Below, piece after piece: positions 6,389 through 48,449 of a stretch of 52,713 bases of DNA. A program made the position numbers and the translations under genes. Numbering within the stretch: position 1 is the stretch's first letter; every line of letters starts with the position of its first letter. A model generated the notes under the pieces. That model saw nothing but the letters and a program-made list of their open reading frames with translations, ran no database searches and was not told the origin of the DNA. Location: positions 1-52,713 of the IMG/VR virus record IMGVR_UViG_3300045971_000144, one strand, 5' to 3'. The stretch comes from a virus.

Positions 6389-6427
6389 AGTCATACAACG
6401 TAAGTGACATTTTATAGGAGAAATCAC

Positions 6428-9355: not shown

Positions 9356-9386
9356 AATAAATATCAATATAGGAGAATATTGATAT
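9356..9386 (+). promoter_or_regulatory. Late-type box and RBS-in-loop hairpin at holin start
   Basis: AATAAATA (9356-9363) resembles a late promoter. It runs into a perfect 10-base inverted repeat, ATATCAATAT (9361-9370) and ATATTGATAT (9377-9386), whose six-base loop is AGGAGA. The right arm contains the first two bases of the holin ATG. In the mRNA the Shine-Dalgarno would be displayed in the loop while the start codon is held in the stem. Confidence 0.6.
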
Positions 9387-9720
9387 GGCAATGATACACA
9401 ATCACGACGAGAATTGGCTACAAAAAAACTGGCGATCAATGATGGGGTGGCAGTATTTACTGGTATGCTTGTTTGATTTTATGCTTGCACCTATTTTTAT
9501 GGGCGTGTATGCATATATTACCAAAACTCCTTATGTCCAATGGGTTCCACTAACTATCCAAGGCGGCGGATTGTACCATTTATCGATGGGTGCAGTAACC
9601 GGCATTACAAGTTTTGCAAAATCACAGGAAAAGACTGCTCTTATTAAGAGCCCGTATGCTCCGGCACCAGGGCAAATAGTTACAGCAGCACCAGCACCAC
9701 AAGCTGATCCAGAAAAATAG
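9385..9720 (+). CDS. Holin (three-helix phage holin family)
   Basis: 111 residues. The conserved look is WRSMMGWQYLLVCLFDFMLAPIFMGVYAY, then WVPLTIQGGGLYHLSMGAVTGITSF, which matches the widespread holin family that sits beside muramidase genes in tailed phages. Hydrophobic helices lie at about 23-45 and 52-75, with a proline/alanine-rich soluble tail. It forms the inner-membrane hole that lets the endolysin out. ATG 9385 and ATG 9391 are both in frame; the AGGAGA at 9371-9376 favours 9385. Both lie against the hairpin at 9361-9386, which may set expression level and therefore lysis timing. Confidence 0.8.
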   Translation: MAMIHNHDENWLQKNWRSMMGWQYLLVCLFDFMLAPIFMGVYAYITKTPYVQWVPLTIQGGGLYHLSMGAVTGITSFAKSQEKTALIKSPYAPAPGQIVTAAPAPQADPEK

Positions 9721-10675: not shown

Positions 10676-13600
10676 ATGATTAATTCAAGCCCAGAAGTAG
10701 AACTTATTGTCAGCAACGCAAGCAACTATGCTAAAGAGCAAAAGCACGAATATGTGACTTTAGAGCATTTAGCATTAGCGTTAGTGCAGCATCAAGAGTT
10801 CAACGATCTTTTAGTTAAACTCCACATTGATGTCAACGGCATCGAGAATGATTTAAAAGAGCATATCAATGCACAGGCTTACTTAGTAAGCGTTGACCCA
10901 GCGTATGAGTCCCCTAAGCGAACTCATGCTTTAGAGCGTGTGTTTAACCGTGCGTTTACACAGGTGCTATTCAGTGGCCGCACTAACATGCTGGTGGCTG
11001 ACATTTACATTAGTTTGACTAGTGAGAATCACAGTCAAGCGCAGTTTATATTTTCACGCTATGGTATCAACCCACAAGACTTGGTTAAGTTTTACAAGAA
11101 GAACTATAACGAGGCTAAAGGTAGTAAACTCGCAACTTCGCATAAAGCAGATTCTATACTGGACGAGTTTTGTACTAACCTAAACGAAAAAGCAATCGCA
11201 GGTAAGATTGATCCGGTGATTGGGCGTGACGATGAACTGGCAGAGATTACTGAAGTATTAGCAAAGCGTAACAAAAGCAACGTGCTCATGGTTGGTGACC
11301 CAGGCGTTGGTAAAGCCCAGCCATTATATTCTAAGGTCAAAACCCCGTCAGGGTGGACTACTATTGACGAAATTAAGGTTGGCACAACAATTACTGCTCA
11401 TGATGGCAAAGATACCACGGTGATAGGCGTGTTTCCCCAAGGAAAAAAAGAGATATACGAAATTGTGTTTGCTGACGGTCGTACTGCTAGATCGTCCATA
11501 GACCATCTATGGACGATCTATGGGAAATTTGGTGAAGCATATACTACACCCGGAGGATGGAAGAGTAAACGTGTAGGCCCCACGACAATGGAATTGTCTG
11601 CAATTATTGAGAAAAGCAAAACTAATAAATCTTATATTAAAGGATTGCATATCCCGTTAATTTCACACCAGTACGATAAACAAAATATCGAGGTTCCAAT
11701 TGCTCCATACCTATTAGGAGCGTTAATTGGTGATGGGTGTTACGCTCCAACCAAAATGGGGTTTACTAGTGCCGATCAATTTATGGTTGATAAAGTTGCT
11801 ACTCTTCTGCCAGACAATTGTTTTATAAGCCAATCCGGAAAGGTAATTGATTTTAAAATTAATGGGAGAAATTTATCTGAAAAGTTCATTCCTGGTGGCA
11901 GTAGGTATAGAGGGCAGACACCAAATCCCTTAAAGGAAAAATTAATCGACCTTGGAATTTATGGACAGAGAAGTCATGAGAAATATATACCAGAACAATA
12001 TTTTAATTGCTCGAATCAGCAAAAGATTGAACTGATACAAGGATTGATGGACACAGATGGCTATGTAGGCAAAAATGGGACATTACAATATACTTCAACC
12101 TCATTCACTCTTGCTAATCAAGTAGTCGAATTAGTTCGCAGCATCGGAGGTATCGCAACCATACGTGCAAAAATTAATAACACATACTTATATAAGGGTG
12201 AACGGGTTTCATGTAAAGATGCATATACTGTTAACATTAGATACTACCAGCCTAATTCTTTAGTTACATTGCCAAGGAAACTTGAAAGAATTAGCAAAAA
12301 TTATCAATACAGCAATCTAAGACTTGGCATTTCTGACATTAAATATGTGGGTGAAGAAGAATGTAAATGCATAATGATCGACCATCCAGATCATTTATAC
12401 ATCACTGACAATTATGTCGTGACCCATAACACTGCGGTGGCAGAAGGGCTTGCGCTACACATTACACAAGGTGTAGTGCCAGAGTATCTTAAAGAGTTTA
12501 CTGTTTACAATCTTGACATTGGCTCGCTGCTCGCAGGTAGCAAATACAGGGGAGAGTTTGAAGAGAAGTTGAAAGATGTTTTACGTGCGTTAGAGACTAA
12601 GGGCAATACTATATTGTTTATTGACGAAGCGCATCAAATGCGTGGTGCTGGCGCAGGTGGTGGCGGCAGTAGCGTAGACTTTGCTAACATGATTAAACCA
12701 GCGTTAAGTAAAGGTAACATCAAAGTTATTGCGTCAACAACATGGGAAGAATACACGTCATCGTTTGAAAAGGATCGTGCGTTGATGCGGCGTTTTTACC
12801 GCATGAACATTACTGAGCCAACATCTGAAGTGGCAGTAAACATTCTCAACGGATTAAAATCGCATTTTGAGAAATTCCACAAAGGTAAGATTACAGACGA
12901 AGCGATTGACGCAGCAGTTAGTTTGAGCGTTAGATATCAGACTGACAAACGATTGCCAGACAAGGCTATTGACTTGATTGATACTGCGTGTGCTAAGAAG
13001 CGCATACTTGGTAAGCAGTTTACTATTGGCCGCGGTGAGATCGTGGAAGTGTTAAGCAAGATTACTAAAATTCCAACGGACCAAATTGGTGTTGACCAAT
13101 CAACTTCTTCAGCATCGTTAGTTAACTTAGAAGCTGATCTCAAGACTAAGTTATACGGGCAGGATCAAGCAATCGACGAAGTATTAGACAAGATTTATGT
13201 TGCTAAGTCAGGCTTGAAAGCATTGGATAAGCCAATGGGCAGTTTCTTGTTTATTGGCCCAAGTGGAGTAGGTAAGACAGAGCTTGCTAAACTGTTGGCT
13301 GCAAACTTGCAAATGAAACTAATCCGCTTTGACATGTCAGAGTATCAGGAAAAACATACAGTAGCAAAACTTATTGGTGCGCCTCCTGGCTACGTTGGCT
13401 ACGAGGATGGCAACTTGGGTGGCGGCTTACTTGTTAGCGAGATTGAGAAGAATCCTAACTCTATTGTGCTGTTTGATGAAATAGAAAAAGCACACCCAGA
13501 TGTGTCTAACGTTTTGCTGGCACTTATGGATGAAGGTGCAGTTACATCAAGTAATGGTAAGAAAGCAGATGCTCGTAATACTATTGTTATTATGACGTCT

Positions 13601-14092
13601 AACTTGGGTGCTGCTGAAAGCGAGAGGAATAGCATCGGGTTTGGTAATATTAAAGATCGTTCCGGTGAAGATGACAAAGCAATTAAAGAGTTCTTTAAAC
13701 CAGAGTTCCGCAATAGACTCGATGGCATTTGTAAGTTTAAGAAACTTGATGAACTTAGTATTAAGCGTGTTGTGCACAAGTTTATGGCTGAAGTTGAAGA
13801 GTTGTTGTCAGAGAAGAAGATTAAAATCAAGCTCACTGAAGCGGCTGTTGACTTCTTGGCTAAAGAAGGCTTTGACCCGGCGATGGGTGCACGGCCAATG
13901 GCACGTAAAATACACACGTTGATTAAAGTGCCGTTGAGTAAGAAGATTTTGTTTGAGGGTGTGTCGGCAAAAGCGTTAGTAATGGTTGATGTGGTTGATG
14001 ACAAAATAGTGCTTAAAGTTATAAACGCCACAGTGTCTCCAGAACAAGCAGTAATTGACGAAAATGGTTTCATCCAAATACCAATGGCGTAA
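10676..14092 (+). CDS. clpA: ClpA-like AAA+ unfoldase interrupted by an intein
   Basis: 1138 codons in total; removal of the 372-residue intein leaves 766 residues, the size of ClpA (758 in E. coli) and too short for ClpB, whose long middle domain is absent. Order: Clp N domain (HEYVTLEHLALALV), first AAA module with Walker A GDPGVGK at 207-213 cut by the intein before Thr586, Walker B TILFIDEAHQMRGAG, second module with GPSGVGKTELAKLLA near 861, IVLFDEIEKAHPDV, and arginine finger FKPEFRNRLD. An IGF tripeptide at 987-989, just before that finger, is where ClpA and ClpX carry the loop that docks ClpP, so the product may feed host ClpP. Until splicing, the first ATP site is non-functional. Confidence 0.93.
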   Translation: MINSSPEVELIVSNASNYAKEQKHEYVTLEHLALALVQHQEFNDLLVKLHIDVNGIENDLKEHINAQAYLVSVDPAYESPKRTHALERVFNRAFTQVLFSGRTNMLVADIYISLTSENHSQAQFIFSRYGINPQDLVKFYKKNYNEAKGSKLATSHKADSILDEFCTNLNEKAIAGKIDPVIGRDDELAEITEVLAKRNKSNVLMVGDPGVGKAQPLYSKVKTPSGWTTIDEIKVGTTITAHDGKDTTVIGVFPQGKKEIYEIVFADGRTARSSIDHLWTIYGKFGEAYTTPGGWKSKRVGPTTMELSAIIEKSKTNKSYIKGLHIPLISHQYDKQNIEVPIAPYLLGALIGDGCYAPTKMGFTSADQFMVDKVATLLPDNCFISQSGKVIDFKINGRNLSEKFIPGGSRYRGQTPNPLKEKLIDLGIYGQRSHEKYIPEQYFNCSNQQKIELIQGLMDTDGYVGKNGTLQYTSTSFTLANQVVELVRSIGGIATIRAKINNTYLYKGERVSCKDAYTVNIRYYQPNSLVTLPRKLERISKNYQYSNLRLGISDIKYVGEEECKCIMIDHPDHLYITDNYVVTHNTAVAEGLALHITQGVVPEYLKEFTVYNLDIGSLLAGSKYRGEFEEKLKDVLRALETKGNTILFIDEAHQMRGAGAGGGGSSVDFANMIKPALSKGNIKVIASTTWEEYTSSFEKDRALMRRFYRMNITEPTSEVAVNILNGLKSHFEKFHKGKITDEAIDAAVSLSVRYQTDKRLPDKAIDLIDTACAKKRILGKQFTIGRGEIVEVLSKITKIPTDQIGVDQSTSSASLVNLEADLKTKLYGQDQAIDEVLDKIYVAKSGLKALDKPMGSFLFIGPSGVGKTELAKLLAANLQMKLIRFDMSEYQEKHTVAKLIGAPPGYVGYEDGNLGGGLLVSEIEKNPNSIVLFDEIEKAHPDVSNVLLALMDEGAVTSSNGKKADARNTIVIMTSNLGAAESERNSIGFGNIKDRSGEDDKAIKEFFKPEFRNRLDGICKFKKLDELSIKRVVHKFMAEVEELLSEKKIKIKLTEAAVDFLAKEGFDPAMGARPMARKIHTLIKVPLSKKILFEGVSAKALVMVDVVDDKIVLKVINATVSPEQAVIDENGFIQIPMA
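11315..12430 (+). mobile_element. Intein with LAGLIDADG homing endonuclease inside the Clp Walker A motif
   Basis: The 372-residue intein starts at Ala (AQPLYSKVKTPSGWTTIDEI) and ends with YVVTHN, followed by Thr as the +1 residue. The splicing blocks are visible: block A as above, block B SIDHLWTIYG (usually with a TxxH; here SxxH), block F ECKCIMIDHPDHLYITDNY and block G VVTHN. In the middle are two LAGLIDADG helices, YLLGALIGDG at about 131-140 and LIQGLMDTDG at about 239-248 of the intein, so the endonuclease is probably intact. Insertion between Lys and Thr of the P-loop is a typical choice because the site is invariant in targets. Ala instead of Cys or Ser at position 1 implies the alternative splicing route known for Ala1 inteins. 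Confidence 0.9.
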
Positions 14093-15343: not shown

Positions 15344-16195
15344 ATGAAGAAAAAACAAAACTTTGCTAAAAAAGCAACTGCTCCAGCGAGCGTGTCAGAC
15401 GCACCAAACGTAACATTGGCGGGCAATACGCACACCAGTATTATTTCCCAAATCAAAGACATTCAAGCACAGCAAGCAATTAGTAATCCGTCACCTCAGG
15501 GTGTAGCATTTGATTTCTCCAAGTGCCACTTACACATTGGCTTACCTTGCTATGGTGGTTTAGTGTTAGAGTCAACAATGACGAGTTTCATTAAGTTTAT
15601 CCTTATGTGTTCTAAAGTTGGCTTGTCGTGGTCAATGGACACAATGGTAAACGAGTCCCTTATTACTCGTGGACGCAATAACTTGATGGCTAAGTTGATG
15701 ACAAACAAGACAGCAACCCACTTTATGTTTGTTGATGCTGATATCAAATTTGAGCCAGAGTCGATTTTCCAGATGATGGCCGCTGACGTTGACATTGTGT
15801 CCGGGGCATACCCAAAGAAGGCCTACCCCATCGCACTAAACATCAATTTGAAGCAGCAAACAAAAATTAAAGGCCCATTATTTACTGTAGATACTGCGGC
15901 GACAGGATTCCTAATGTTTAAACGTAAGGTATATGAGGACTTGATTGCTGCCCACCCCCAAACAAAATATGTTGATGACGTGGGATTAGGAAAGCAATAT
16001 GAGCCGTTTATGTATGCCATCTTTGATTGCATCATTGATGAAAAGGGCCATTACTTGAGTGAAGATTGGACCTTCTGCCGTAGGGCATCAGCTCTTGGGT
16101 ATGATATATGGTGTGATGGCCGTGTTTTGCTTGACCATACTGGCACCCATACCTTTAAGGGCGATTTGTCGCTGATCACTGGACCTAAACCGTAA
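15344..16195 (+). CDS. Glycosyltransferase, GT-A fold (family 2-like)
   Basis: 283 residues. After a basic, disordered N terminus the GT-A core begins at about residue 62 (CHLHIGLPCYGGLVLEST). The metal-binding DXD is FVDADIKF (Asp131, Asp133), preceded by ITRGRNNLMAKLM, the usual start-of-catalysis helix. Later blocks DIVSGAYPKKAYP, AATGFLMFKRKVYEDL and LSEDWTFCRRASALGYDIW match phage and bacterial family 2-like enzymes; ED in LSEDW is the likely catalytic base. It transfers a sugar, possibly to a virion protein or host glycan. Its last 11 bases overlap the antisense GIY-YIG gene. Confidence 0.82.
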   Translation: MKKKQNFAKKATAPASVSDAPNVTLAGNTHTSIISQIKDIQAQQAISNPSPQGVAFDFSKCHLHIGLPCYGGLVLESTMTSFIKFILMCSKVGLSWSMDTMVNESLITRGRNNLMAKLMTNKTATHFMFVDADIKFEPESIFQMMAADVDIVSGAYPKKAYPIALNINLKQQTKIKGPLFTVDTAATGFLMFKRKVYEDLIAAHPQTKYVDDVGLGKQYEPFMYAIFDCIIDEKGHYLSEDWTFCRRASALGYDIWCDGRVLLDHTGTHTFKGDLSLITGPKP

Positions 16196-16802
16196 CAAGT
16201 TTATTGCGACAATTATCACCATGCCATCTTACCAATGCACCGCGTTGGTAAGATTTTTCACAATGAATACATTTAAATTTCGGTTGATTTTTATTTGATT
16301 CGGAATTTTTACGTTTTGATTCAGGGGAATGGGTTTTGTTATACATAGGATGATTAGTTCCCACCCTGTTTTCTCTGCTTACTAACCACCCTTTAGTGAT
16401 TCCATCACTATATCGTTTGCTCATTGCAGCAGTCAACTCACGTGGAGATGGTTTTCCTGCCAATGACTTCGAAATTTTTTGCTTAATTTCCTCAGATAAG
16501 TGTCTACCTGGTGCCCCGCCATCCATACCATTTTCAGGTATGCAATTTGCCCATTCGCTAGATTCAACAATGCGATTTTCAGTAGAAAACGACATTGCAA
16601 ACTTTGATAATTCCTCTTGATCCGTAAATAATTTATACCATATAGTGTCAACATGTTTGCCATGCTTAAATAAATGGCGCTTCCAATATTTCCCTGATCC
16701 ATAATACGTTAACGGATTTTTACGTGTAGTCTTACCAAAATATTTTAAACCAGTGATTTTATGTTGTTTAACGTATAGCCACGTCGGACGATAAATACCC
16801 AT
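16185..16802 (-). CDS. GIY-YIG homing endonuclease A (antisense, free-standing)
   Basis: 205 residues. The N terminus WLYVKQHKITGLKYFGKTT fits the GIY-YIG pattern (first tripeptide as LYV, second as YFG), followed by YYGSGKYWKRHLFKHG, the usual arginine region. NUMOD3-like basic blocks lie in the middle (LSEEIKQKISKSLAGK, THSPESKRKNSESNKN) and a C-terminal zinc finger CIHCEKSYQRGALVRWHGDNC is likely the DNA reader. It lies on the minus strand against the end of the glycosyltransferase gene with an 11-base overlap. Its leader is nearly identical to that of the gene at 46217-46726. Confidence 0.85.
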   Translation of the reverse strand: MGIYRPTWLYVKQHKITGLKYFGKTTRKNPLTYYGSGKYWKRHLFKHGKHVDTIWYKLFTDQEELSKFAMSFSTENRIVESSEWANCIPENGMDGGAPGRHLSEEIKQKISKSLAGKPSPRELTAAMSKRYSDGITKGWLVSRENRVGTNHPMYNKTHSPESKRKNSESNKNQPKFKCIHCEKSYQRGALVRWHGDNCRNKLVTV

Positions 16803-27235: not shown

Positions 27236-27241
27236 TATTTG

Positions 27242-27814
27242 ATGCAGCCATCAACTAAAGTAAGACCATATGTTTATAATGGCATCAATCCAATAACTGG
27301 CGAATTTTATATTGGTTACCGAGAAATAAACACAAAACCATCTCATATAGATATACTTGAGTATAGAACTTCATCAAAAGTAGTAGAGCCGATATTTGAT
27401 ATGATGACCTGGCAAGTGTTGGCAGAATTTGAAACAGGAAAAGATGCATATGATTTTGAGCAACTTTCAATATACGAGAATTGGGACAATCCATTGTTGT
27501 TAAATGAAAGATGTTATTTTCAGAAAGAAAGATTTAAAAGCAAAAAAGGTTCTGTTCCGTGGAATAAAGGAAAACCCGGGCTACAGTCTCATTCTGAAAC
27601 TACTAAAGAAGTTATTCGTAAAAAACGAGCAACACAAGTATTTTCTTCTGAGACTTGCATCAAAATTAGTAAATCATTAGTTGGGAATAGTAGAAGTAAA
27701 AAGCCTCGGTCGATAGAACAAAATTTGGCAAAATCTTCAAGACAGACTGGACAAAAAAGAGGTCCATATAAAAAGAAGTCAGTAAATAGCATACAATCAC
27801 AGTTACGCAGCTAA
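27242..27814 (+). CDS. GIY-YIG homing endonuclease (same strand as polymerase)
   Basis: 190 residues from ATG 27242, seven bases after the DsbA-like stop. The N-terminal module reads YVYNGINPITGEFYIGYREI, a good GIY-YIG pattern with YVY and YIG. EYRTSSKVVEP may carry the catalytic Arg, and FETGKDAYDFEQLSIYENW the metal-binding Glu. A NUMOD3-type block WNKGKPGLQSH and a basic, disordered C terminus (RQTGQKRGPYKKKS) would bind DNA. It is inserted just upstream of the DNA polymerase gene, a typical site for genes that exploit linked homing. It lacks the leader found on the antisense copies. Confidence 0.8.
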   Translation: MQPSTKVRPYVYNGINPITGEFYIGYREINTKPSHIDILEYRTSSKVVEPIFDMMTWQVLAEFETGKDAYDFEQLSIYENWDNPLLLNERCYFQKERFKSKKGSVPWNKGKPGLQSHSETTKEVIRKKRATQVFSSETCIKISKSLVGNSRSKKPRSIEQNLAKSSRQTGQKRGPYKKKSVNSIQSQLRS

Positions 27815-27834: not shown

Positions 27835-30045
27835 TTGAGTTACATTGACGCAATTCTCGATAAACAGCGAGATAAAATTCACGTTGTAGAACGTGACGAA
27901 ACGGGTAAGCGTGTTTACACTGAGTTCCCAACCGAATATGTCCTTTATTATGAGGATTCAAAAGGTAAACACCAAACCATTTACAGAACACCTGTATCTA
28001 AGTTTACAACACAATCCAATACTCAGTTTAGAAAAGAGTTAAAAATACATAGTAGTAAAAAACTATGGGAAAGCGATGTAAATCCAATCTTCCGTTGCTT
28101 AGAGAAAAACTATCTCGGCGCAAAATCCCCAAAACTCCATACATGCTTTTTCGACATTGAGTCCGACTTTGACTTAGCACAGGGCGGTTATGCGCCAGTG
28201 GATGATCCGTTTAATATGATCACGGCTATTACTGTTTACTTAGACTGGTTGGACAAACTCATCACCTTAGCAGTGCCGCCTAAGACTTTAACTTGGGATC
28301 AGGCAACTGAGATCGCAAGTTTCTTTGACGACACATACCTGTTTCATACCGAAGCAGAAATGCTTGACACGTTTTTAAACTTGATTGACGATGCGGATGT
28401 GATTAGCGGATGGAACAGTGAGGGCTATGACGTTCCTTACACTGTTGGACGCATTATGCGGGTGCTGGCTAAGGACGACCTACGCAGGCTTTGCTTGTGG
28501 GATCAAATGCCAAAGAAGCGAGAGTTTGAACGCTACGGTGCGAAAAGCATGACGTATGATTTATGCGGCCGTGTGCACCTGGACTATATGCAACTGTATC
28601 GCAAGTATACATATGAAGAACGCCACAGCTATTCCCTTGATGCAATCGGCGAGTATGAACTTAACGAGCGCAAGTTGGCGTACGAAGGATCATTGGATCA
28701 GTTATACAATCAAGACTTTAAAAAGTTCATCGACTATAACAGGCAAGATACTCGCTTGCTTGCTCGTTTAGACGAAAAACTACGCTTCTTAGACTTGGCA
28801 AATGAGTTGGCACATGATAATACAGTGTTGTTGGCGACAACAATGGGCGCGGTTGCAGTGACTGACCAAGCTATTATTAACGCAGCGCACAAACAGGGAT
28901 TGGTTGTTCCATCCAAACCGCCGTATGTTGAAGAGACTGATGACGATATTGACGACGATGACAGCGACGGTCGAGCCGCTGGAGCGTATGTAGCACAGCC
29001 TAAGGTAGGTATGCATCAGTATATAGGTGCTATCGACATTAACTCACTATACCCATCCACAATTCGTGCCCTTAACATGGGACCAGAAACTATCGTGGGG
29101 CAATTACGGCCAGTAATGAGCGAACAATATATTGCGTCTAAAATGGCAGACAAGATTGTTAACCACCAAAAGCGTAAAGGTATGTCATTTGCCGCAGCAT
29201 GGGACGGATTGTTTGGGAGTCTTGAATACATTGCAGTAATGGCCCAAGAGAAAGACACAGAGATTATCATTGACTGGGAAGGTGGTGAGGCCACTGCCCA
29301 TAGTGCTGCTGATGTGTGGTCGCTTATCTTTGAAGGTGGACAGAAGTGGATGCTAAGTGGCAACGGCACTATTTTCCGCTACGACATTGAAGGCATTATC
29401 CCCACATTGCTTGCTACTTGGTATAAAGAGCGTAAAGAGCTACAGGCTAAGAAGAAGGAAGCAACCACTAAGGAAGATATTGCGTTCTGGGATAAGCGAC
29501 AGTTAGTGAAGAAGATTAACTTGAACTCACTGTATGGTGCGTTGTTGAATCCAGGCTGTAGATTCCACGATTTTAGGATTGGGCAGTCCACTACACTGAC
29601 TGGGCGTGTTATTGCCAAGCACATGGATGCGTTTACAAACGAGTGTATTACAGGCAAGTATGAACACGATGGTAAAGCAATTGTTTACGGTGATAGCGTA
29701 ACTGGTGACAGCCTCGTTAAAACTGATTCGGGCGAAATCACTATTGCGGAGATGTTTGTGCAGTGTGCTGGGCACGATGTTTACGGCGAAAAGGAATATG
29801 GCTTTGATACTTCCGCTAAAGTAGTAGGGTTTGATATATGTAAAGATCAACCAATTATGAGTGAAGTATCGTTTGTGATTCGGCATAAGACTAAGAAGAA
29901 GTTATATAGAATAACAACAGAAAGCGGTGAGTCTGTTACAGTAACAGAAGATCATAGTATCATGGTAGACCGCGATGGATTCACAATAGAAGTTAAACCA
30001 ACACAACTTACATTAGATGACTTAATAATCAAGCTTGTGGCATAA
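27835..30045 (+). CDS. 43: DNA polymerase gp43-like, N-terminal part fused to split-intein N half
   Basis: 736 residues. Residues 1-620 are the N-extein of a family B polymerase: exonuclease motifs FFDIESDFD (Asp107, Glu109), GWNSEGYDVPY and YNRQDTRLL; polymerase motif A IDINSLYPSTIRAL near 401; motif B KKINLNSLYGALLN near 560; and the first half of motif C, YGD, at 618-620. At Ser621 the frame turns into an intein N half of 116 residues and stops. The start is TTG 27835 (TTGAGTTAC), supported by AAGGA 6-7 bases upstream and an in-frame stop just before. Alone it lacks the second catalytic Asp and the thumb, so it must be joined to the product at 31007-32026. Confidence 0.93.
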   Translation: MSYIDAILDKQRDKIHVVERDETGKRVYTEFPTEYVLYYEDSKGKHQTIYRTPVSKFTTQSNTQFRKELKIHSSKKLWESDVNPIFRCLEKNYLGAKSPKLHTCFFDIESDFDLAQGGYAPVDDPFNMITAITVYLDWLDKLITLAVPPKTLTWDQATEIASFFDDTYLFHTEAEMLDTFLNLIDDADVISGWNSEGYDVPYTVGRIMRVLAKDDLRRLCLWDQMPKKREFERYGAKSMTYDLCGRVHLDYMQLYRKYTYEERHSYSLDAIGEYELNERKLAYEGSLDQLYNQDFKKFIDYNRQDTRLLARLDEKLRFLDLANELAHDNTVLLATTMGAVAVTDQAIINAAHKQGLVVPSKPPYVEETDDDIDDDDSDGRAAGAYVAQPKVGMHQYIGAIDINSLYPSTIRALNMGPETIVGQLRPVMSEQYIASKMADKIVNHQKRKGMSFAAAWDGLFGSLEYIAVMAQEKDTEIIIDWEGGEATAHSAADVWSLIFEGGQKWMLSGNGTIFRYDIEGIIPTLLATWYKERKELQAKKKEATTKEDIAFWDKRQLVKKINLNSLYGALLNPGCRFHDFRIGQSTTLTGRVIAKHMDAFTNECITGKYEHDGKAIVYGDSVTGDSLVKTDSGEITIAEMFVQCAGHDVYGEKEYGFDTSAKVVGFDICKDQPIMSEVSFVIRHKTKKKLYRITTESGESVTVTEDHSIMVDRDGFTIEVKPTQLTLDDLIIKLVA
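29695..30042 (+). mobile_element. Split intein, N-terminal half (IntN)
   Basis: 116 residues starting SVTGDSLVKTDSGEITIAEM (Ser1). Block B is visible as ESVTVTEDHSIMV with the TxxH motif, which activates the N-terminal bond. The half ends KPTQLTLDDLIIKLVA and then stops. The insertion point is between Asp and Thr of the polymerase YGDTDS motif. The partner half is at 31007-31132. Confidence 0.9.
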
Positions 30046-30048
30046 ATA
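30041..30048 (+). promoter_or_regulatory. T4-late-type box before the split-intein endonuclease
   Basis: CATAAATA overlaps the stop of the IntN frame and lies 26 bases before ATG 30075. An ATAGGAG ribosome binding site (about 30059-30065) follows. It may give the endonuclease and the C-terminal polymerase half their own late transcript. Confidence 0.45.
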
Positions 30049-30074
30049 CTATATGGAGATAGGAGTATTAGCAT

Positions 30075-31031
30075 ATGATTAAATGTCTAGAATGTGGTTT
30101 TGAATCTGAGAGGTTACAATGGACGCACTTCAAATATAAGTGCACTGGTAAATTTAAGAACGGTGTCGAATATATGGCAGCGTACCCAGGGGCAAAAGTT
30201 GTAAGTAGTACGCTCGCAAAGTGTACCGCAGTTACACTAAATAACCTTGTCAAGAAATATGGGCAAGAAGAAGGCAAAACACGATGGGAGAGGTACTGTG
30301 GCAGGCAATCCAATTCTAACACGTACGAGTATAAGAAGGAAAAATACGGTTGGTCCAAGGAAGAGTTTGACGAGTATAATTCATCCAGGGCGCAAACATT
30401 ACAAAAAATGATTGCTCGCCACGGTGAAGAAGTAGGTGCTGCTAAGTGGGAAAATTACTGTCTCCGCCAGGCGTACACAAATACTAAAACATATTTCATC
30501 GAAAAATACGGGCAAGATGTAGGGACATTTCTATATCTAGCAGTCAACAAGAAAAAGAGTCTTGCTAGTAATCCGGCGCTGTTGGCAGAGCATTTACATA
30601 TTACTGAGGAAGAAGCTACTCAGATCATAATGAGTAGAAAATCCACTCAACATTGCAGCAACTTAGAAAACGAGTTTGTTGTAATGCTAGAAGACGCGAT
30701 CGGTTTCAAATTAGACCATACAAGCGTTAACTCTCCGTTCGGGAAATGGTCTACTCTTCTGAACTCATATGTGATTTATGATGTAGTCCACAAGAATTGC
30801 ATTATAGAATTTAACGGCGACTACTGGCATGCTAACCCAGATATCTATGTCGAATCTGCACTAATCCGTGGCCGCAGTGCGGTTGACATATGGCACAAAG
30901 ACATGCTAAAGTTGAAGACTGCCGAAGACTTAGGATTTAAGGTGATAACGGTATGGGAACAAGAATTTAAAAGCAGCAAAGCACTAACTATTGAAAGGGT
31001 AATCAAATGGATGTTATCAGAACTAAAGTAA
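30075..31031 (+). CDS. Vsr-like homing endonuclease between split polymerase halves
   Basis: 318 residues. The N terminus CLECGFESERLQWTHFKYKC is a zinc finger. Two similar middle segments follow (YGQEEGKTRWERYCGRQ and GEEVGAAKWENYCLRQA), each preceding a Tyr/Lys-rich YxxEKYG block, probably DNA-reading repeats. The C-terminal nuclease resembles very-short-patch-repair endonucleases: YDVVHKNCIIEFNGDYWHAN, DIWHKDMLKLKTAEDLGFKV and ITVWEQEF carry the expected acidic, His and Lys residues. A nuclease of this kind lying between halves of a split intein is the 'fractured gene' arrangement described from metagenomes by Dassa and colleagues (2009). The last 25 bases overlap the IntC frame. Confidence 0.85.
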   Translation: MIKCLECGFESERLQWTHFKYKCTGKFKNGVEYMAAYPGAKVVSSTLAKCTAVTLNNLVKKYGQEEGKTRWERYCGRQSNSNTYEYKKEKYGWSKEEFDEYNSSRAQTLQKMIARHGEEVGAAKWENYCLRQAYTNTKTYFIEKYGQDVGTFLYLAVNKKKSLASNPALLAEHLHITEEEATQIIMSRKSTQHCSNLENEFVVMLEDAIGFKLDHTSVNSPFGKWSTLLNSYVIYDVVHKNCIIEFNGDYWHANPDIYVESALIRGRSAVDIWHKDMLKLKTAEDLGFKVITVWEQEFKSSKALTIERVIKWMLSELK

Positions 31032-31132
31032 AGTCAGTCGAATGTCTAGGAGAAGTGGATGACTACGTTTATGATATAAGCGTTACTGGTCAAGACCCAG
31101 TATTCTTCGCAAACGACTTGCTCGTTAAAAAT
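31007..31132 (+). mobile_element. Split intein, C-terminal half (IntC)
   Basis: 42 residues. Block F is DDYVYDISVTGQDPVFFAND and block G is LLVKN before Thr+1. The penultimate residue is Lys, not the usual His that assists asparagine cyclisation; such replacements occur in some active inteins but merit a splicing test. Confidence 0.88.
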
Positions 31133-32026
31133 ACCGATTCCGTTTATTTCAGTGCATGGCCTATTATCAAGAAAGAAGTTGACGCTGGAACATTGGAATG
31201 GAACAAGGACATTTGCTTGCAGATGTATGATGCTATCGCTGACAAGGTTAACGAGAGTTTCCCCGCTATGATGGCTGCGGCTTGCAACTGTCCAACTGAG
31301 CGTGGTGCGTTGATTAAAGGCGGACGAGAATTAATTGCCACCTCTGGTTTGTTTATTAAAAAGAAGCGTTATGCTGTATTGATTTACGACATGGAAGGCA
31401 CACGTTTGGATCAATACGATCACGAAACTTCCAAGAAGAAAGGTGTGCACTTTGGACATGGCAAAGTAAAAGCAATGGGCTTAGACTTGAAGCGTTCAGA
31501 TACACCTCGCGTAGTACAGGACTTTTTGAGTGACTTACTTTACGATACGCTAATTAACGTAGACAAAGAAAAGATCATTACTAAAATCCGCGACTTTAAA
31601 CTGAAGTTTGCTGAAATCCCTGCATGGGAAAAAGGCACACCTAAGCGTGTGAACAATTTGACCAAATACACCAAAGAGTTTGAACTTACTGGTGGCTGTA
31701 GGGTTGGACACGTGATGGCAGCGATTAACTGGAACAGACTGAAAAAGATGCATGGTGATAACTACAGCCCAAGCATCGTAGACGGTATGAAGGTTATCGT
31801 GTGCAAACTTAAAAACAATCCGCTTGAGTATACCTCTGTTGCTTACCCAACAGACATTATGCACATACCGGACTGGTTTAAAGAGCTACCGTTTGACAAC
31901 GACCTTATGGAGACAACTATTGTTAACCAAAAGGTGGAGAACTTATTAGGCGTGCTAAACTGGGACATAACTAACAATACTGAAGTTAAGACCACATTTA
32001 GCTCGTTATTTACATTTGGAGAATAA
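31007..32026 (+). CDS. 43: Split-intein C half fused to DNA polymerase C-terminal part
   Basis: 339 residues. The first 42 (ATG 31007, to ANDLLVKN) are the intein C half; Thr43 is the +1 residue and opens the rest of polymerase motif C, TDSVYFSAW. The 297-residue C-extein carries the palm end and thumb: KKKRYAVLIYDMEG (the KxY motif), RSDTPRVVQDFLSDLL, and a C terminus ending TTFSSLFTFGE, which could serve as the clamp-binding tail. Joined to the N part the polymerase would be 917 residues, close to T4 gp43 (898). The frame starts within the endonuclease gene by 25 bases, in another frame. Confidence 0.92.
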   Translation: MDVIRTKVKSVECLGEVDDYVYDISVTGQDPVFFANDLLVKNTDSVYFSAWPIIKKEVDAGTLEWNKDICLQMYDAIADKVNESFPAMMAAACNCPTERGALIKGGRELIATSGLFIKKKRYAVLIYDMEGTRLDQYDHETSKKKGVHFGHGKVKAMGLDLKRSDTPRVVQDFLSDLLYDTLINVDKEKIITKIRDFKLKFAEIPAWEKGTPKRVNNLTKYTKEFELTGGCRVGHVMAAINWNRLKKMHGDNYSPSIVDGMKVIVCKLKNNPLEYTSVAYPTDIMHIPDWFKELPFDNDLMETTIVNQKVENLLGVLNWDITNNTEVKTTFSSLFTFGE

Positions 32027-38791: not shown

Positions 38792-39469
38792 ATGTCGTTT
38801 AACAAACAAAAATGTGATCCAGAATTGGGCAGAAAAGTACACGAGCACTTAGTTAAATGCGGTGTAGAAACACCGCAAAAACAAAACAGTATCAGCCGTA
38901 GTGATAAGATTGACCTTATTGAAAAACATTTTGCTGTCATTATGGAAACACTTGGATTAGATCTAACTGACGACAGTTTAGAGGAAACGCCAAAACGTGT
39001 GGCCAAAATGTTCGTAAATGAAATATTTTTTGGGCTTGATTATGAGGCATTCCCCAAATGTACTACAGTTGACAACAAAATGTTATACGACGAAATGGTC
39101 GTTGAAAGAAACGTAAATGTACAATCTAACTGCGAACATCACTTTGTTGTCATTGATGGTGTTGCAACGGTCGCTTATATTCCTAACAAACGTGTATTGG
39201 GCCTTAGTAAGATCAATCGCATCGTTGAGTACTTTAGCAAACGCCCGCAAATCCAAGAACGATTGACCGAGCAAATCTTCCACGCATTACAGTTCATCCT
39301 TGATACTGAAAATGTTGCTGTGGTAGTTGACGCTAAACATTTCTGTGTTCGTGCTCGTGGCGTTGAAGACACTGGCTCAAGCACAGTAACAAGCAAACTC
39401 GGCGGTGGATTTAAAACAGATCCATCAGTGAGATCAGAGTTTATGCGTTTAGTTTCTGTTAGGAGTTAA
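38792..39469 (+). CDS. folE: GTP cyclohydrolase I
   Basis: 225 residues, the length of bacterial FolE (222). It opens the guanine ring of GTP to make dihydroneopterin triphosphate, the first step to folate and to 7-deazaguanines. Zinc ligands are visible as NCEHHF (Cys and His) and KHFCVRARGVED (Cys); substrate blocks YIPNKRVLGLSKINRIVEYFSKRPQIQERLT and TGSSTVTSKLGG match the family closely. The N-terminal 35 residues are a charged extension. Late-type box and hairpin upstream. Together with the QueD-like protein, QueE and DpdA it implies deazaguanine synthesis rather than folate supply. Confidence 0.95.
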   Translation: MSFNKQKCDPELGRKVHEHLVKCGVETPQKQNSISRSDKIDLIEKHFAVIMETLGLDLTDDSLEETPKRVAKMFVNEIFFGLDYEAFPKCTTVDNKMLYDEMVVERNVNVQSNCEHHFVVIDGVATVAYIPNKRVLGLSKINRIVEYFSKRPQIQERLTEQIFHALQFILDTENVAVVVDAKHFCVRARGVEDTGSSTVTSKLGGGFKTDPSVRSEFMRLVSVRS

Positions 39470-43184: not shown

Positions 43185-43778
43185 ATGATTTTCTATACAT
43201 ACGCCTACATACGAAATAAAGATTCTGTTGCCGGAAAAGCAGGATCTCCGTATTATATTGGCAAAGGCAAAGAAGATAGAGCTTATGAAAATCACGGAAA
43301 AATTCGTGTACCTAAGAATAAAAACTATATTGTAATTTTGGAAACTAACTTAACCGAAGTTGGTGCATTTGCATTAGAACGACGATATATAGAATGGTAT
43401 GGTCGAAGAGATTTAGGCACCGGTATATTACACAATAGAACCAATGGCGGGGATGGTAGTTCGGGGAGAATTTTTAAGTATAGCGAAGAGTCCAAGTTGA
43501 AAATGTCTCTTGCCAAAAAGGGCAAGGCACCGCCAAATAAAGGTAAAAAGTGGAATAAAGAGACAATACAAAAAATGTCTGACGTAAAGAAAGGTAGTAA
43601 AAATCCACGCTTTAATGCTATAATTAAAGATGAAACAAGATTAAAAATATCTGCATGGCAGAAAGGTGTACCTAAATCTAAGGTAAAATGTAGTCATTGC
43701 GGAATAGAAACATCGTTAATGAATATTGCAAGATGGCATGAAAATAATTGTAAGGCTGTAAAAAATGAAAAAATATAA
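43185..43778 (+). CDS. GIY-YIG homing endonuclease upstream of queE
   Basis: 197 residues. The GIY-YIG module is FYTYAYIRNKDSVAGKAGSP then YYIGKGKEDRAYENHG; ALERRYIEWYGRRDLG carries the catalytic Arg/Glu helix, and NRTNGGDGSSG is the typical end of the module. NUMOD3 repeats (KGKAPPNKGKKWNKETIQKM, SAWQKGVPKSK) and a zinc finger CSHCGIETSLMNIARWHENNC complete it; the zinc finger is very like that of the antisense copy at 16185. It overlaps queE by 14 bases. No ribosome binding site is seen; the hairpin at 43149 lies in its place. It appears intact. Confidence 0.85.
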   Translation: MIFYTYAYIRNKDSVAGKAGSPYYIGKGKEDRAYENHGKIRVPKNKNYIVILETNLTEVGAFALERRYIEWYGRRDLGTGILHNRTNGGDGSSGRIFKYSEESKLKMSLAKKGKAPPNKGKKWNKETIQKMSDVKKGSKNPRFNAIIKDETRLKISAWQKGVPKSKVKCSHCGIETSLMNIARWHENNCKAVKNEKI

Positions 43779-44709
43779 ATATTCGGAAATTTTTGGAAAA
43801 ACAATCCAGGGCGAAGGTCGTTACACTGGTTATCCAACAGTATGGATTAGATTTTGGGGTTGTAATTTTGAGTGCAACGGTTTTGGTCAAGATACACCGG
43901 AAGATCCTACTACATATAACCTAGATTATCAAACTATAGATGTGTCGTCTATTAAACACATGAACGATCTCCCAGTGTTTAGTAAAGGATGTGACAGTTC
44001 GTACAGCTGGTCGAAGAAATTTGCACATCTTGCAAATACAAGTTCGGTATCAGATATATGTGATAAATTAGAATATTATCTAATTTCAGAGAGTAATCCG
44101 GGGGGAAAATTTTTACATCCAGAAAGTAAACAATGGACACATCTTGCATTTACGGGTGGTGAGCCAATGATGAATCAATCTGCTATTGTAGACATTATGC
44201 AAGAATTTGATAGGCGTGAGAACTCACCAAAATATGTAACCATAGAGACAAACGGTACGCAAATGATACGGGAAAATTTTCAGGCGTATTTCGGTAGTAA
44301 AGTGATTACTGAATTTCTAAAGGGCTTTACTCTTGCTGGGCCGTTATTTAATGACATAGAAGGAAGAGAATTGTTCTGGAGTGTCAGCCCGAAGTTATAC
44401 CTCAGTGGGGAGAAATGGGAAGATGCTATTAGGTCTGAAATAGTAGCAGGATATAAACTTGTTTCAAATGTAGGACAATTAAAGTATGTGTCGAATGGTA
44501 GTGCACGATCGTGGGACGAAGTTAAACAGGCTACAAAAGAATATGCTGCTAGATCAATTGATTGGCCTGTATGGATTATGCCTGTAGGGGCAGATATCGA
44601 AGGGCAGAATAAAGTCGCAGCAAGAATTACAGAGGGTGCTGTTGAAAGAGGATACAATGTTGCTGCAAGAGTTCACACATATATTTTCGGAAATGTTGTT
44701 GGTAAATGA
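43765..44709 (+). CDS. queE: QueE, 7-carboxy-7-deazaguanine synthase (radical SAM)
   Basis: 314 residues, longer than the usual 210-250. N-terminal SEIFGKTIQGEGRYTGYPTV is the QueE signature, GGEPMMNQ the SAM-binding GGEP motif, and YVTIETNGTQ a family block. The iron-sulfur ligands are Cys33, Cys37 and, instead of the usual CxxxCxxC, Cys76 in KGCDSSYSW, which resembles the CDTxYxW that normally follows the third cysteine; a 38-residue spacer has been inserted. QueE rearranges carboxytetrahydropterin to 7-carboxy-7-deazaguanine, the precursor for DpdA chemistry. The start ATG 43765 lies in the end of the endonuclease gene; a relic of an older start may be at 43152. Confidence 0.9.
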   Translation: MKKYKYSEIFGKTIQGEGRYTGYPTVWIRFWGCNFECNGFGQDTPEDPTTYNLDYQTIDVSSIKHMNDLPVFSKGCDSSYSWSKKFAHLANTSSVSDICDKLEYYLISESNPGGKFLHPESKQWTHLAFTGGEPMMNQSAIVDIMQEFDRRENSPKYVTIETNGTQMIRENFQAYFGSKVITEFLKGFTLAGPLFNDIEGRELFWSVSPKLYLSGEKWEDAIRSEIVAGYKLVSNVGQLKYVSNGSARSWDEVKQATKEYAARSIDWPVWIMPVGADIEGQNKVAARITEGAVERGYNVAARVHTYIFGNVVGK

Positions 44710-45802: not shown

Positions 45803-46227
45803 TGTTTAGCAAGTTAAAAAAGTTTTTCACAAGTAGCAATGTACCTGACGAAGTTTTTGTGCCGCCACCAGTTGCGGAGAAGAAACCACGATCACCACGC
45901 AAGAAAAAAGTTGAGGTGCCAGTCTTAACTGACGCAGTTAACATTGAAAAAGTAAAAGCAACCGCCGCTGGCGAGCCGTGGGTTAATGTCACTGGTGTTG
46001 AGATTGATCTTGACAATGTTGGTGCTGGCAGTTTTAATTTAGATTTCAATGACATATTTGTGGCACGGTTAGTCAAAGCAGGCTACCGTGGTAATACTGA
46101 CATTCAAATCGTGGACCAATGGTTTACTGAAATTTGTAGAAACATTGCTCTAGAAACATTTGCCCAAGACATGGCCGATCCCGATAAACGCACTGAATGG
46201 ACTAATAAGTCAACCCCTACTTCTTGA
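45802..46227 (+). CDS. Unknown phage protein, 141 aa
   Basis: A basic N-terminal part (MFSKLKKFFTSSNVPDEVFV followed by Pro/Lys/Arg-rich sequence) precedes a compact domain from about residue 60: EPWVNVTGVEIDLDNVGAGS, NLDFNDIFVARLVKAGYRGN and VDQWFTEICRNIALE. This domain looks like one I associate with T4-type cyanophages, without known function. The last 11 bases overlap antisense endonuclease B, and the C-terminal codons include the left copy of a 13-base direct repeat, so the original end of the gene may have been changed by the insertion. Confidence 0.6.
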   Translation: MFSKLKKFFTSSNVPDEVFVPPPVAEKKPRSPRKKKVEVPVLTDAVNIEKVKATAAGEPWVNVTGVEIDLDNVGAGSFNLDFNDIFVARLVKAGYRGNTDIQIVDQWFTEICRNIALETFAQDMADPDKRTEWTNKSTPTS

Positions 46228-46246
46228 TTTTAGAATAAGTCAACCC
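46204..46246. repeat. 13-bp direct repeat at the end of endonuclease B
   Basis: AATAAGTCAACCC occurs at 46204-46216 and again at 46234-46246, 30 bases apart. The first lies in the last codons of the + strand gene and the second in the coding end of endonuclease B. It may be a scar of insertion or slipped repair. Confidence 0.55.
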
Positions 46247-46726
46247 TTCATGTCCATTAGACCTTCCTTTCTTGGCCATTGATATAGCCAGTCGTCTTTC
46301 AGCAGGCATTGGCCCATTAACACGCCCAGTTAGTATGTTTGATATTTTCTGGCCAGTCGACGGGTTTCTTTTTGTCCCCAATCGTGCGGCAGATATTTTC
46401 TGTTTGGTGTCAGATCGAACAATTCTTCCAATAACACCGCCACCGTCAACCCCCGTTTCAGGTTTAAGGTTTGCCCAGTTCGGTGATTCAACTATGTCAT
46501 GCGATGCCGAAAATGCTAATGCTTCTTCTTTAAGTAATTCTTCATTATCATACTGATGACACCAAATAGTCGAAACGTCTTTGCCATGGACTGCCAAATG
46601 CCTCTTCCAATATTTTCCAGAACCTAAATATTTGATTGGGTCTTTTCTAGTTGTTTTACAGAAATATTTTAATCCAGTTTGATTATGTTGTTTTATCATT
46701 AGCCATGTAGGCTGATAAATATTCAT
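46217..46726 (-). CDS. GIY-YIG homing endonuclease B (antisense)
   Basis: 169 residues. It is a close paralogue of endonuclease A in its N-terminal module: PTWLMIKQHNQTGLKYFCKT, YLGSGKYWKRHLAVHG, and IVESPNWANLKPETGVDGGG are shared with small changes. The second GIY-YIG tripeptide is YFC instead of YFG, which may weaken the active site. NUMOD3-type repeats (SDTKQKISAARLGTK, STGQKISNILTGR) follow, but the C-terminal zinc finger of A is missing, so it looks shortened by about 40 residues. Its 61-base leader is the same as that of A. Confidence 0.8.
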   Translation of the reverse strand: MNIYQPTWLMIKQHNQTGLKYFCKTTRKDPIKYLGSGKYWKRHLAVHGKDVSTIWCHQYDNEELLKEEALAFSASHDIVESPNWANLKPETGVDGGGVIGRIVRSDTKQKISAARLGTKRNPSTGQKISNILTGRVNGPMPAERRLAISMAKKGRSNGHEGLTYSKIKK

Positions 46727-46838: not shown

Positions 46839-47828
46839 ATGAAATACTTACTTATTGACTTGGCAAATTGTTTTTTTAGGGCAATACATGCGAGTGCACG
46901 TGGCTCTGATCTTGAAGAGCGTGTGTCCTTTGCTGTGCACTGTGCGCTTCAAAGTATCGCGTCTGCTTGGCGTGATCAGAATGCCACACACGTTGTGGTA
47001 ATGTTGGAGGGTCACTCGTGGCGTAAGGATTTTTATAAGCCATATAAAGCGAACAGAGAAGTCGCACGTATGGCACAGACTGAGAAAGAGAAGAAAGACG
47101 GTGAAGCGTTTTTTGCTGCGCTAATTGACTTGACTGACTTTCTGATCAACAAAACTAACGTAACCGTTATACAGCATCCAAACTTGGAAGCAGACGATTT
47201 AATCGCAGGCTGGATACAAAATCATCCACTGGATGAGCATGTTATTGTTAGCACTGACACAGACTTCTACCAGTTACTTGCTGAAAACGTCACCCAGTAT
47301 AGCGGTGTATTGCGTCAACTACACACAATAAACGGTGTGTTTGATGCCAAGGGCAAAGCAGTCATTGACAAAAAGACGGGCTTTCCAATCGCAGTGCCAG
47401 ACCCAAAATACATCTTGTTTGAAAAATGTGTTCGTGGTGACCCCACTGACAATGTGTTTAGTGCTTACCCTGGTGCGAGATCAAAAGGCAGCAAAAACAA
47501 GATTGGTATACAGGAGGCATTCGCGGACCGAAATAACAAAGGGTTCAATTGGAATAATTTTCAATTACAACGATGGGTCGATCATAATGAAGTAGAGCAT
47601 AGAGTTTTGGATGATTTTCTCCGAAATGAGATTCTCATTGATTTATCAAAACAGCCACCAGAAATAAGAAAAATTATTGACGACACAGTGTTAGCGTCAG
47701 CCACCGCAAAAAATAAATTAATGATTGGTGCTCAATTTCTTAAGTTCTGTGGAGTTCATAATTTAGTAAAGTTATCTGAACAGTGTGACACTTATGCTAA
47801 GATATTATCTGCCGTTTATGCCACCTAG
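46839..47828 (+). CDS. rnh: T4 RNase H-like 5'-3' exonuclease (FEN family)
   Basis: 329 residues, near T4 RNase H (305). This nuclease removes RNA primers and flaps during lagging-strand synthesis. The acidic metal-binding residues of the PIN/FEN fold are seen in LLIDLANCFF (Asp), NLEADDLIAGW (Glu and Asp pair) and IVSTDTDFYQLL (Asp pair); KCVRGDPTDNV is the conserved helix-hairpin entry. A basic bridge SWRKDFYKPYKANR is the arch region. ATG 46839 is chosen over an ATG 15 bases upstream because the latter lies in the promoter -10. The last 24 bases overlap antisense endonuclease C. Confidence 0.88.
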   Translation: MKYLLIDLANCFFRAIHASARGSDLEERVSFAVHCALQSIASAWRDQNATHVVVMLEGHSWRKDFYKPYKANREVARMAQTEKEKKDGEAFFAALIDLTDFLINKTNVTVIQHPNLEADDLIAGWIQNHPLDEHVIVSTDTDFYQLLAENVTQYSGVLRQLHTINGVFDAKGKAVIDKKTGFPIAVPDPKYILFEKCVRGDPTDNVFSAYPGARSKGSKNKIGIQEAFADRNNKGFNWNNFQLQRWVDHNEVEHRVLDDFLRNEILIDLSKQPPEIRKIIDDTVLASATAKNKLMIGAQFLKFCGVHNLVKLSEQCDTYAKILSAVYAT

Positions 47829-48449
47829 TATCCAATTTTTATGTTGCTTGTATTTTCCGCTTACGACTCTACTTATACTGCTTTGATCTAAGTTAAATGT
47901 GCGCTGAAAATCATACATAGTCATCGTCACAGTGTTATTGGTAATTGTATTATGAAAAATATATTTATTATGATTATACATATATGAATTTCTTCCTGAA
48001 ATACGTGCTCTCACTTCTGGTCGATTCATGGCATGAACATGTGTGGCATGTTCAGGAAGTTTAGTCCAATGATTATTCCCTGTTTGTTTTTTAATTGTTT
48101 CAGGAGATCGTTTGGTCCCGACCATTCGATCACTCATACGTTTTCGTTCTTCAGCAGACATACAAAGTCGCCCGCCGCCTCCTCCAGTTTCTGGTATTTT
48201 ATTTGCCCATTCAGAACTTTGGACAATGTTCCATAAATTACTGTAATACCGCCCCAGATCGTTTACCTCAATTTTATTACACGATTCATGTAAAATAACC
48301 GTGTCTATATCTTTATTACCATAAGTATTTAAATGCTTAAGCCAATCAACACCAGACCCTTTATATTTGAATGGATTCTGAGTTGTTTGCCCTAAATATT
48401 TAAACCCAGTTTTTCTATGAGTCTTAATGTAAAGATAATAAATATTCAT
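47805..48449 (-). CDS. GIY-YIG homing endonuclease C (antisense)
   Basis: 214 residues. The module begins YYLYIKTHRKTGFKYLGQTT (LYI and YLG), with YKGSGVDWLKHLNTYG and VQSSEWANKIPETGGGGGRL aligned to copies A and B. NUMOD3-like MSAEERKRMSDRMVGTKRSP follows, and the C terminus MYDFQRTFNLDQSSISRVVS with GKYKQHKNWIL is a NUMOD1-type helix-turn-helix DNA reader instead of the zinc finger of A. It is the most diverged of the three. It lies antisense at the 3' end of the RNase H gene with a 24-base overlap. Confidence 0.85.
   Translation of the reverse strand: MNIYYLYIKTHRKTGFKYLGQTTQNPFKYKGSGVDWLKHLNTYGNKDIDTVILHESCNKIEVNDLGRYYSNLWNIVQSSEWANKIPETGGGGGRLCMSAEERKRMSDRMVGTKRSPETIKKQTGNNHWTKLPEHATHVHAMNRPEVRARISGRNSYMYNHNKYIFHNTITNNTVTMTMYDFQRTFNLDQSSISRVVSGKYKQHKNWILGGINGR

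What the first reader, a model, noticed from the sequence alone, without database searches (positions are those of the whole stretch)
27835..32026. Fractured DNA polymerase gene: trans-splicing split intein with a Vsr-like endonuclease in the break
The polymerase is encoded in two genes, split between Asp and Thr of the catalytic YGDTDS motif. The first ends in a 116-residue intein N half (Ser1, TxxH), the second begins with a 42-residue C half ending KN before Thr. Between them is a 318-residue zinc-finger, Vsr-like endonuclease with its own late-type box. The spliced polymerase would be 917 residues, near T4 gp43. Phage replication then depends on protein trans-splicing. This is the fractured-gene layout reported from metagenomic data by Dassa and colleagues.
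Basis: partly seen in the sequence, partly recalled or inferred. Interest (0 to 1): 0.75.

Follow-up and report, generated by a model that had tools for sequence, protein, structure and literature searches.

The report
Phage DNA polymerase split by mobile intein
A phage's DNA polymerase gene is cut in two at its catalytic motif by a mobile cassette made of two intein halves around a Vsr-like endonuclease, so that working polymerase must be made by protein trans-splicing; this is a new, well-supported example of an arrangement already known from other phages.

Summary
PolB is encoded in two genes split at YGD^TDS, with a 116-aa IntN, a 42-aa IntC and a 318-aa Vsr-like endonuclease between them; splicing would give 917 aa. 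It is not an artefact: 77 contigs carry the same three-ORF layout. The kind is already known. Aeromonas phages (Aes123 and others), Tenacibaculum PTm1 and Pseudomonas MIJ3 have the same fractured PolB, and the homologous Aes123 PolB1 split intein trans-splices in vitro and has a crystal structure (9HTH).

I add evidence that the cassette moves. PolB and cassette trees disagree, and in several pairs near-identical cassettes with sharp edges lie in strongly diverged polymerases. Empty, split, endonuclease-decayed and re-fused states all occur. In relatives' contigs of 259-328 kb the fractured PolB is the only one found.

Trans-splicing, DNA cleavage and dependence of replication remain untested for this phage. 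I rate it a new member of a known kind.

The parts
27835..29694 (+). PolB N-extein (620 aa; exonuclease motifs, SLYPS, NSLYG, ending at YGD)
   Evidence: PF03104 8.7e-15 and PF00136 1.3e-22; motif positions
29695..30042 (+). Split intein N half, 116 aa (Ser1, RH 63-64, TEDH 84-87)
   Evidence: TIGR01445 1.7e-11, PF14890 5.5e-9, PDB 9HTH 2e-11
30041..30048 (+). Late-promoter-like box CATAAATA
   Evidence: NATAAATA upstream of this gene in 37 of 48 non-redundant relatives; same box at -27 to -34 before a holin and a virion gene in the window
30050..30077 (+). Predicted RNA hairpin; GGAG in the loop, start codon in the stem
   Evidence: z = -1.99 here, mean z -1.87 over 46 relatives versus -0.4 to +0.2 in five controls; covariation
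30075..31031 (+). Vsr-like (putative homing) endonuclease, 318 aa
   Evidence: Vsr by profile and fold; invariant E245, G248, H252, D276, K279, W294, near-invariant D236
30084..30143 (+). Zinc-finger-like segment of the endonuclease (C4, C7, H18, C23)
   Evidence: invariant in 22 relatives
31007..31132 (+). Split intein C half, 42 aa (ends LLVKN); start codon lies inside the endonuclease gene (25-nt overlap)
31133..32026 (+). PolB C-extein, 297 aa (TDSVYF...) and stop codon
   Evidence: tblastn 45% to PA5oct DNA polymerase

Best explanation
This is a mobile fractured-gene cassette in a T4-like PolB gene. Shown by sequence: a class 1, serine/threonine-type intein is split at the usual endonuclease position, and a Vsr-like endonuclease gene sits in the split in another reading frame. 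Inferred: the two precursors (PolN-IntN and IntC-PolC) associate; Ser1 and Thr+1 form oxyester intermediates; the terminal Asn cyclises; and the halves join across YGD-TDS to give the 917-aa polymerase. The endonuclease cuts intein-free polB alleles near the conserved YGDTDS codons of co-infecting phages, and break repair copies the whole IntN-endonuclease-IntC unit into them. Endonuclease synthesis is probably held back until late infection by a late promoter plus a start-codon hairpin.
For: Anatomy and catalytic residues. Characterised relative: Aes123 PolB1, 9HTH, trans-splices at about 30% natively and with high efficiency once engineered (PMC11923092, PMC13014065). Same layout in 77 contigs as separate ORFs. 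Mobility: empty/occupied state changes at least 21 times on the PolB tree, 16 forced by starred branches. WIN groups with L086 on the PolB tree (99) but with L004 and L083 on the cassette tree (100); AU rejects WIN+L086 for the cassette (p 0.002) and WIN+L004(+L083) for PolB (p 3e-98, 1e-9). Recent transfers: cassette DNA 95-100% identical with edges at the IntN start and IntC end, exteins mostly 60-90% (L143/L147, L124/L126, L089/L099). Constraint without the endonuclease: L003/L004 keep both intein halves but have a wrecked endonuclease. Only PolB in long relatives. Late control.
Against: No direct assay for this phage. The penultimate His of the intein is Lys here (KN, shared with L003/L004, SCTP-2 and L157); most relatives have HN, so splicing may be slower. 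Tree changes could include losses as well as gains. RNAalifold finds no consensus hairpin on the same alignment, and modelled unmasking affects the AUG (p 0.005) but not the SD (p 0.80). The record is incomplete, so a second polymerase cannot be excluded for this phage itself.
Confidence: 0.9

Rival explanations
1. The two polymerase pieces work without splicing, by non-covalent assembly, as described for split NrdA of phage Aeh1.
For: Such assembly is documented for other phage genes split by homing endonucleases (PMC2988022).
Against: Here the break lies inside the catalytic YGDTDS motif and each piece carries an intein half with conserved splicing residues. The intein halves stay intact even where the endonuclease is wrecked and show far fewer amino-acid-changing than silent differences.
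Confidence: 0.05
2. The split is an assembly or sequencing artefact (two frameshifts in one gene with a contiguous intein plus endonuclease domain).
For: Metagenomic contig; three ORFs lie in different frames.
Against: The same three-ORF layout is in 77 contigs and in isolated phages such as Aes144, PTm1, VPALA and KP13-7. A start inside the endonuclease gene with a mostly 22-28 nt overlap is conserved.
Confidence: 0.01
3. The cassette is an inherited relic, no longer mobile; the endonuclease is retained for another reason.
For: Some relatives have lost the endonuclease (L003/L004, L044, L011).
Against: Near-identical cassettes in strongly diverged polymerases, tree conflict, and an endonuclease with conserved active-site residues.
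Confidence: 0.07

Closest known systems
Aes123 PolB1 split intein and fractured gp43 of Aeromonas salmonicida phages (JN377894-JN377905)
   Same: PolB gene, Ser1 intein, putative Vsr endonuclease between the halves; trans-splicing and crystal structure 9HTH published
   Different: Insertion two residues downstream (YIDTD^S instead of YGD^TDS), +1 Ser rather than Thr, HN rather than KN; about 28-29% intein identity; gp43 further split upstream into 43A/43B
Tenacibaculum phage PTm1, Klebsiella phage KP13-7, Campylobacter phages CP21/F379, Vibrio phage VPALA
   Same: Split PolB with Vsr-like endonuclease; KP13-7 uses the same YGD^TDS site
   Different: Distant sequences; most use the D^S site
Pseudomonas jumbo phages MIJ3 and PA5oct
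   Same: Split PolB intein with an endonuclease gene between the halves (PMC6892783)
   Different: Endonuclease described as HNH or Hef-like instead of Vsr; D^S site
Salicola phage SCTP-2 PolB intein
   Same: Same YGD^TDS site, KN ending
   Different: Contiguous mini-intein, one gene, no endonuclease
T4 I-TevI and Aeh1 mobE regulation
   Same: Late promoter just upstream of the endonuclease with an RNA hairpin that hides the initiation region in long transcripts (PMC2988022)
   Different: There a group I intron or free-standing gene, here a split-intein cassette; hairpin here hides the start codon more than the SD

Membership tests
Fractured gene with split intein (arrangement named by Dassa and colleagues) | One enzyme encoded by two genes separated inside a conserved motif | tested here: met
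Fractured gene with split intein (arrangement named by Dassa and colleagues) | Intein N half at the end of the first gene, C half at the start of the second | tested here: met
Fractured gene with split intein (arrangement named by Dassa and colleagues) | Free-standing endonuclease gene between the halves | tested here: met
Fractured gene with split intein (arrangement named by Dassa and colleagues) | Trans-splicing gives the full enzyme | not testable with these tools
   Shown in vitro only for the homologous Aes123 intein
Cysteine-independent (Ser1) class 1 intein | Ser1, Ser/Thr+1, NX His preceded by Arg/Lys, N3 TxxH, terminal Asn | tested here: met
   motif definition from PMC10189870. Two non-catalytic Cys in IntN and one in IntC
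Cysteine-independent (Ser1) class 1 intein | Penultimate His (common, not strictly required) | tested here: not met
   Lys instead; own knowledge: active inteins without it exist, e.g. Npu DnaE ends in Ser-Asn
Vsr-like homing endonuclease | Vsr-type nuclease fold with conserved acidic and His residues | tested here: met
Vsr-like homing endonuclease | Sequence-specific cleavage of intein-free alleles | not testable with these tools
   only indirect mobility evidence
I-TevI/mobE-like late control | Late promoter placed so that late transcripts lack the 5' arm of a hairpin hiding the RBS or start | tested here: inconclusive
   Box and hairpin present; covariation moderate but no RNAalifold consensus; predicted unmasking significant for AUG only

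The most novel reading that the evidence does not exclude
In fractured polB genes the break also carries a conserved late promoter and a start-codon hairpin that delay the endonuclease until late infection, while the essential polymerase C half is started independently from inside the endonuclease gene. The classic T4 homing-endonuclease timing switch would thus have arisen again, or been carried over, in a trans-splicing intein cassette. Among relatives the cassette passes through a full cycle: empty site, split, endonuclease decayed, and re-fused to a contiguous mini-intein.
Probability: 0.45. Interest if true: 0.5.

Novelty: new member of a known kind. Interest (0 to 1): 0.35.

Why it matters
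It adds a clear, widespread family (dozens of relatives) of naturally split Ser1 inteins, a small and technically useful group. It also gives comparative evidence that a split-intein/Vsr cassette still moves between divergent polymerases. Finally it links two known themes, fractured genes and late-timed homing endonucleases, in one testable locus.

Tried and rejected
Second PolB gene in the record: none found. Exact TATAAATA as a late-promoter signal: at chance level in the window; rescued only by the spacing-conserved NATAAATA. Single-sequence PDB search for the endonuclease gave only a spurious hit; the profile and fold were needed. Scan of viral contigs with the Aes144 endonuclease gave no relatives; the genome-contig scan gave two partial nuclease-domain matches only. 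Scan for other tandem-intein loci like L157 found only that contig. RNAalifold consensus of the leader: none. Dassa et al. 2009 not held. An AU test of WIN+L083 alone did not finish. Assembly artefact rejected. No tRNA or Rfam match in the window.

Full report
WHAT IS THERE. The window is the whole of a 52,713-bp virus record, a linear fragment. ORF 27835-30045 encodes a T4-like family B DNA polymerase up to the catalytic YGD, followed without a break by a 116-residue intein N half. ORF 31007-32026 starts with a 42-residue intein C half and continues TDSVYF with the rest of the polymerase. Joining the exteins gives 917 aa. Exonuclease motifs (DIE, NSEGYD, YNRQD) and polymerase motifs (SLYPS, NSLYG, YGD) are intact. 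Between the halves, in a different frame from both, lies a 318-aa ORF (30075-31031) whose last 25 nt overlap the start of the third ORF.

INTEIN. IntN has Ser1, the Arg-His pair at 63-64 (the NX motif of cysteine-independent inteins, PMC10189870) and TEDH at 84-87. IntC ends in Asn followed by Thr+1. The residue before that Asn is Lys, not His. Among relatives this KN ending is seen only in L003/L004, Salicola phage SCTP-2 and the first intein of L157. The best solved relative is 9HTH (E 2e-11), the Aes123 PolB1 split intein of Aeromonas phages, which trans-splices in vitro.

ENDONUCLEASE. A 25-row profile reaches E. coli Vsr structures at E about 0.1. The AlphaFold model (pLDDT 89) has Vsr 1cw0 and 1vsr as best PDB matches (E 8.6e-3 and 1.5e-2, prob 1.00). 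C4, C7, H18 and C23 (zinc-finger-like) and E245, G248, H252, D276, K279, W294 and E295 are invariant in 22 relatives; D236 is nearly so.

NOT AN ARTEFACT, NOT RARE. The closest viral-contig relatives of this endonuclease lie next to an IntN inside polB, nearly all with a recognisable IntC on the other side. Seventy-seven loci have the three features as separate ORFs, 73 with an IntC frame that can start before the endonuclease stop, most often overlapping by 22-28 nt. Isolated phages show the same layout. Two insertion sites are used, YGD^TDS (this window) and YGDTD^S two residues later; the D^S inteins form one group on the cassette tree (support 93).

MOBILITY. Of 98 non-redundant polymerases 45 are empty and 53 occupied, a sample chosen by similarity and so not a prevalence estimate. 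On their tree the empty/occupied label changes at least 21 times, 16 of them forced by well-supported branches. The window's polymerase is sister to L086 (84% identity, support 99), but its cassette is closest to L004 and L083 (support 96 and 100). Holding WIN+L086 together in the cassette tree is rejected (p 0.002), as is holding WIN+L004+L083 (p 1e-9) or WIN+L004 (p 3e-98) together in the PolB tree. These groups were named after seeing identities and trees, which makes the p-values optimistic. Independent of trees, several pairs show recent movement. In L143/L147, L124/L126 and L089/L099 the cassette is 95-100% identical in DNA with synonymous divergence 0.00-0.03, while the exteins have synonymous divergence from about 0.9 to saturation; identity falls within about one 60-nt bin of the IntN start and IntC end. 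L093/L088 and L112/L011 show a similar pattern. This is what homing by break repair predicts, though cleavage itself is not shown.

LIFE CYCLE OF THE CASSETTE. L003 and L004, the window's nearest intein relatives, keep both intein halves but their endonuclease is mostly deleted and full of stops. L044 is a second such case. L011 has a contiguous mini-intein lying next to split L112 in the cassette tree. Its junction matches a deletion between similar short stretches (AAAACGGTAAA and AAAAGGTAAAA) that removed the endonuclease and fused IntN to IntC in frame. Split to contiguous reversal therefore seems to have happened once here.

REGULATION. Exact TATAAATA is at chance level in the window. But NATAAATA lies upstream of the endonuclease in 37 of 48 non-redundant loci, against a density of 0.0125 per 60 nt and none in 43 regions upstream of polN. 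Spacing is mostly -30 to -37. In the window the same box at -27 to -34 precedes a holin and a virion structural gene, as expected of late promoters. The leader folds better than shuffles (mean z -1.87; five control positions -0.41 to +0.21). Seven of 12 stem pairs show changes on both sides (2 of 500 shuffles reach the number of such cells; slid versions far lower). A transcript starting about 6 nt after the box is predicted to expose the start codon more (0.31 to 0.46 unpaired, p 0.005) but not the SD (p 0.80). The layout resembles I-TevI and mobE control (PMC2988022). I found no paper in the library joining split inteins and late promoters, but the library is partial.

DEPENDENCE. No other PolB match is in the record. 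In contigs of 328, 318, 302 and 259 kb from relatives with this layout, all PolB matches lie at the fractured locus. That makes splicing likely to be needed for replication in this group, but it is inferred.

NOVELTY. Fractured PolB with split intein and Vsr-like endonuclease was already deposited for Aeromonas phages and PTm1, and a split PolB intein was described for MIJ3. The window is a new member of that kind. The comparative mobility evidence, the late-control leader and the re-fusion case are the additions.

Noticed in passing
L157 7576-9471 (IMGVR 3300009194_000009): The YGDTDS motif of this polB holds two inteins: a split intein with Vsr endonuclease at YGD^T and, after an extein of only two residues (Thr-Asp), a contiguous mini-intein at D^S. 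Only this one contig was found.
   Followed up: partly
window 11315-12430 within ORF 10676-14092: A ClpA-type ATPase gene carries a contiguous intein of about 372 aa with a LAGLIDADG_3 domain, inserted in the first Walker A motif (GVGK|AQPL...VTHN|TAV; Ala1). Phage ClpA homologues cover only about 63% of the ORF in two pieces.
   Followed up: partly
window 16185-16802(-), 46217-46726(-), 47805-48449(-): Three homing-endonuclease-like genes share a conserved leader (D1 repeat 210 nt at 80%; a shorter third copy) with a NATAAATA box 66-68 nt upstream of the start.
   Followed up: partly
window 27239-27814 and 43185-43778: Further homing-endonuclease-like genes, one directly upstream of polB and one with NUMOD3 motifs.
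   Followed up: no
window 4876-6333 and 6404-7492: A full TctA-type tricarboxylate transporter gene (PF01970 2.9e-79) and a TctC-like ORF in a phage contig.
   Followed up: no
window 38792-39469 and 43765-44709: GTP cyclohydrolase and QueE-like genes, suggesting deazaguanine DNA or tRNA modification.
   Followed up: no
L102, L103, L113, L126, L129, L142, L153, L158, near PolN residue 542-566: A second insertion of roughly 1.1-1.8 kb interrupts polB upstream of the split intein.
   Followed up: no
window 9385-9717: The holin-like gene has a NATAAATA box and an apparent 10-bp inverted repeat around AGGAGA before its start, the same design as the endonuclease leader.
   Followed up: partly
L105/L108: Polymerase N part and cassette nearly identical, C part more diverged, suggesting a recombination point near the downstream end of the cassette.
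   Followed up: no
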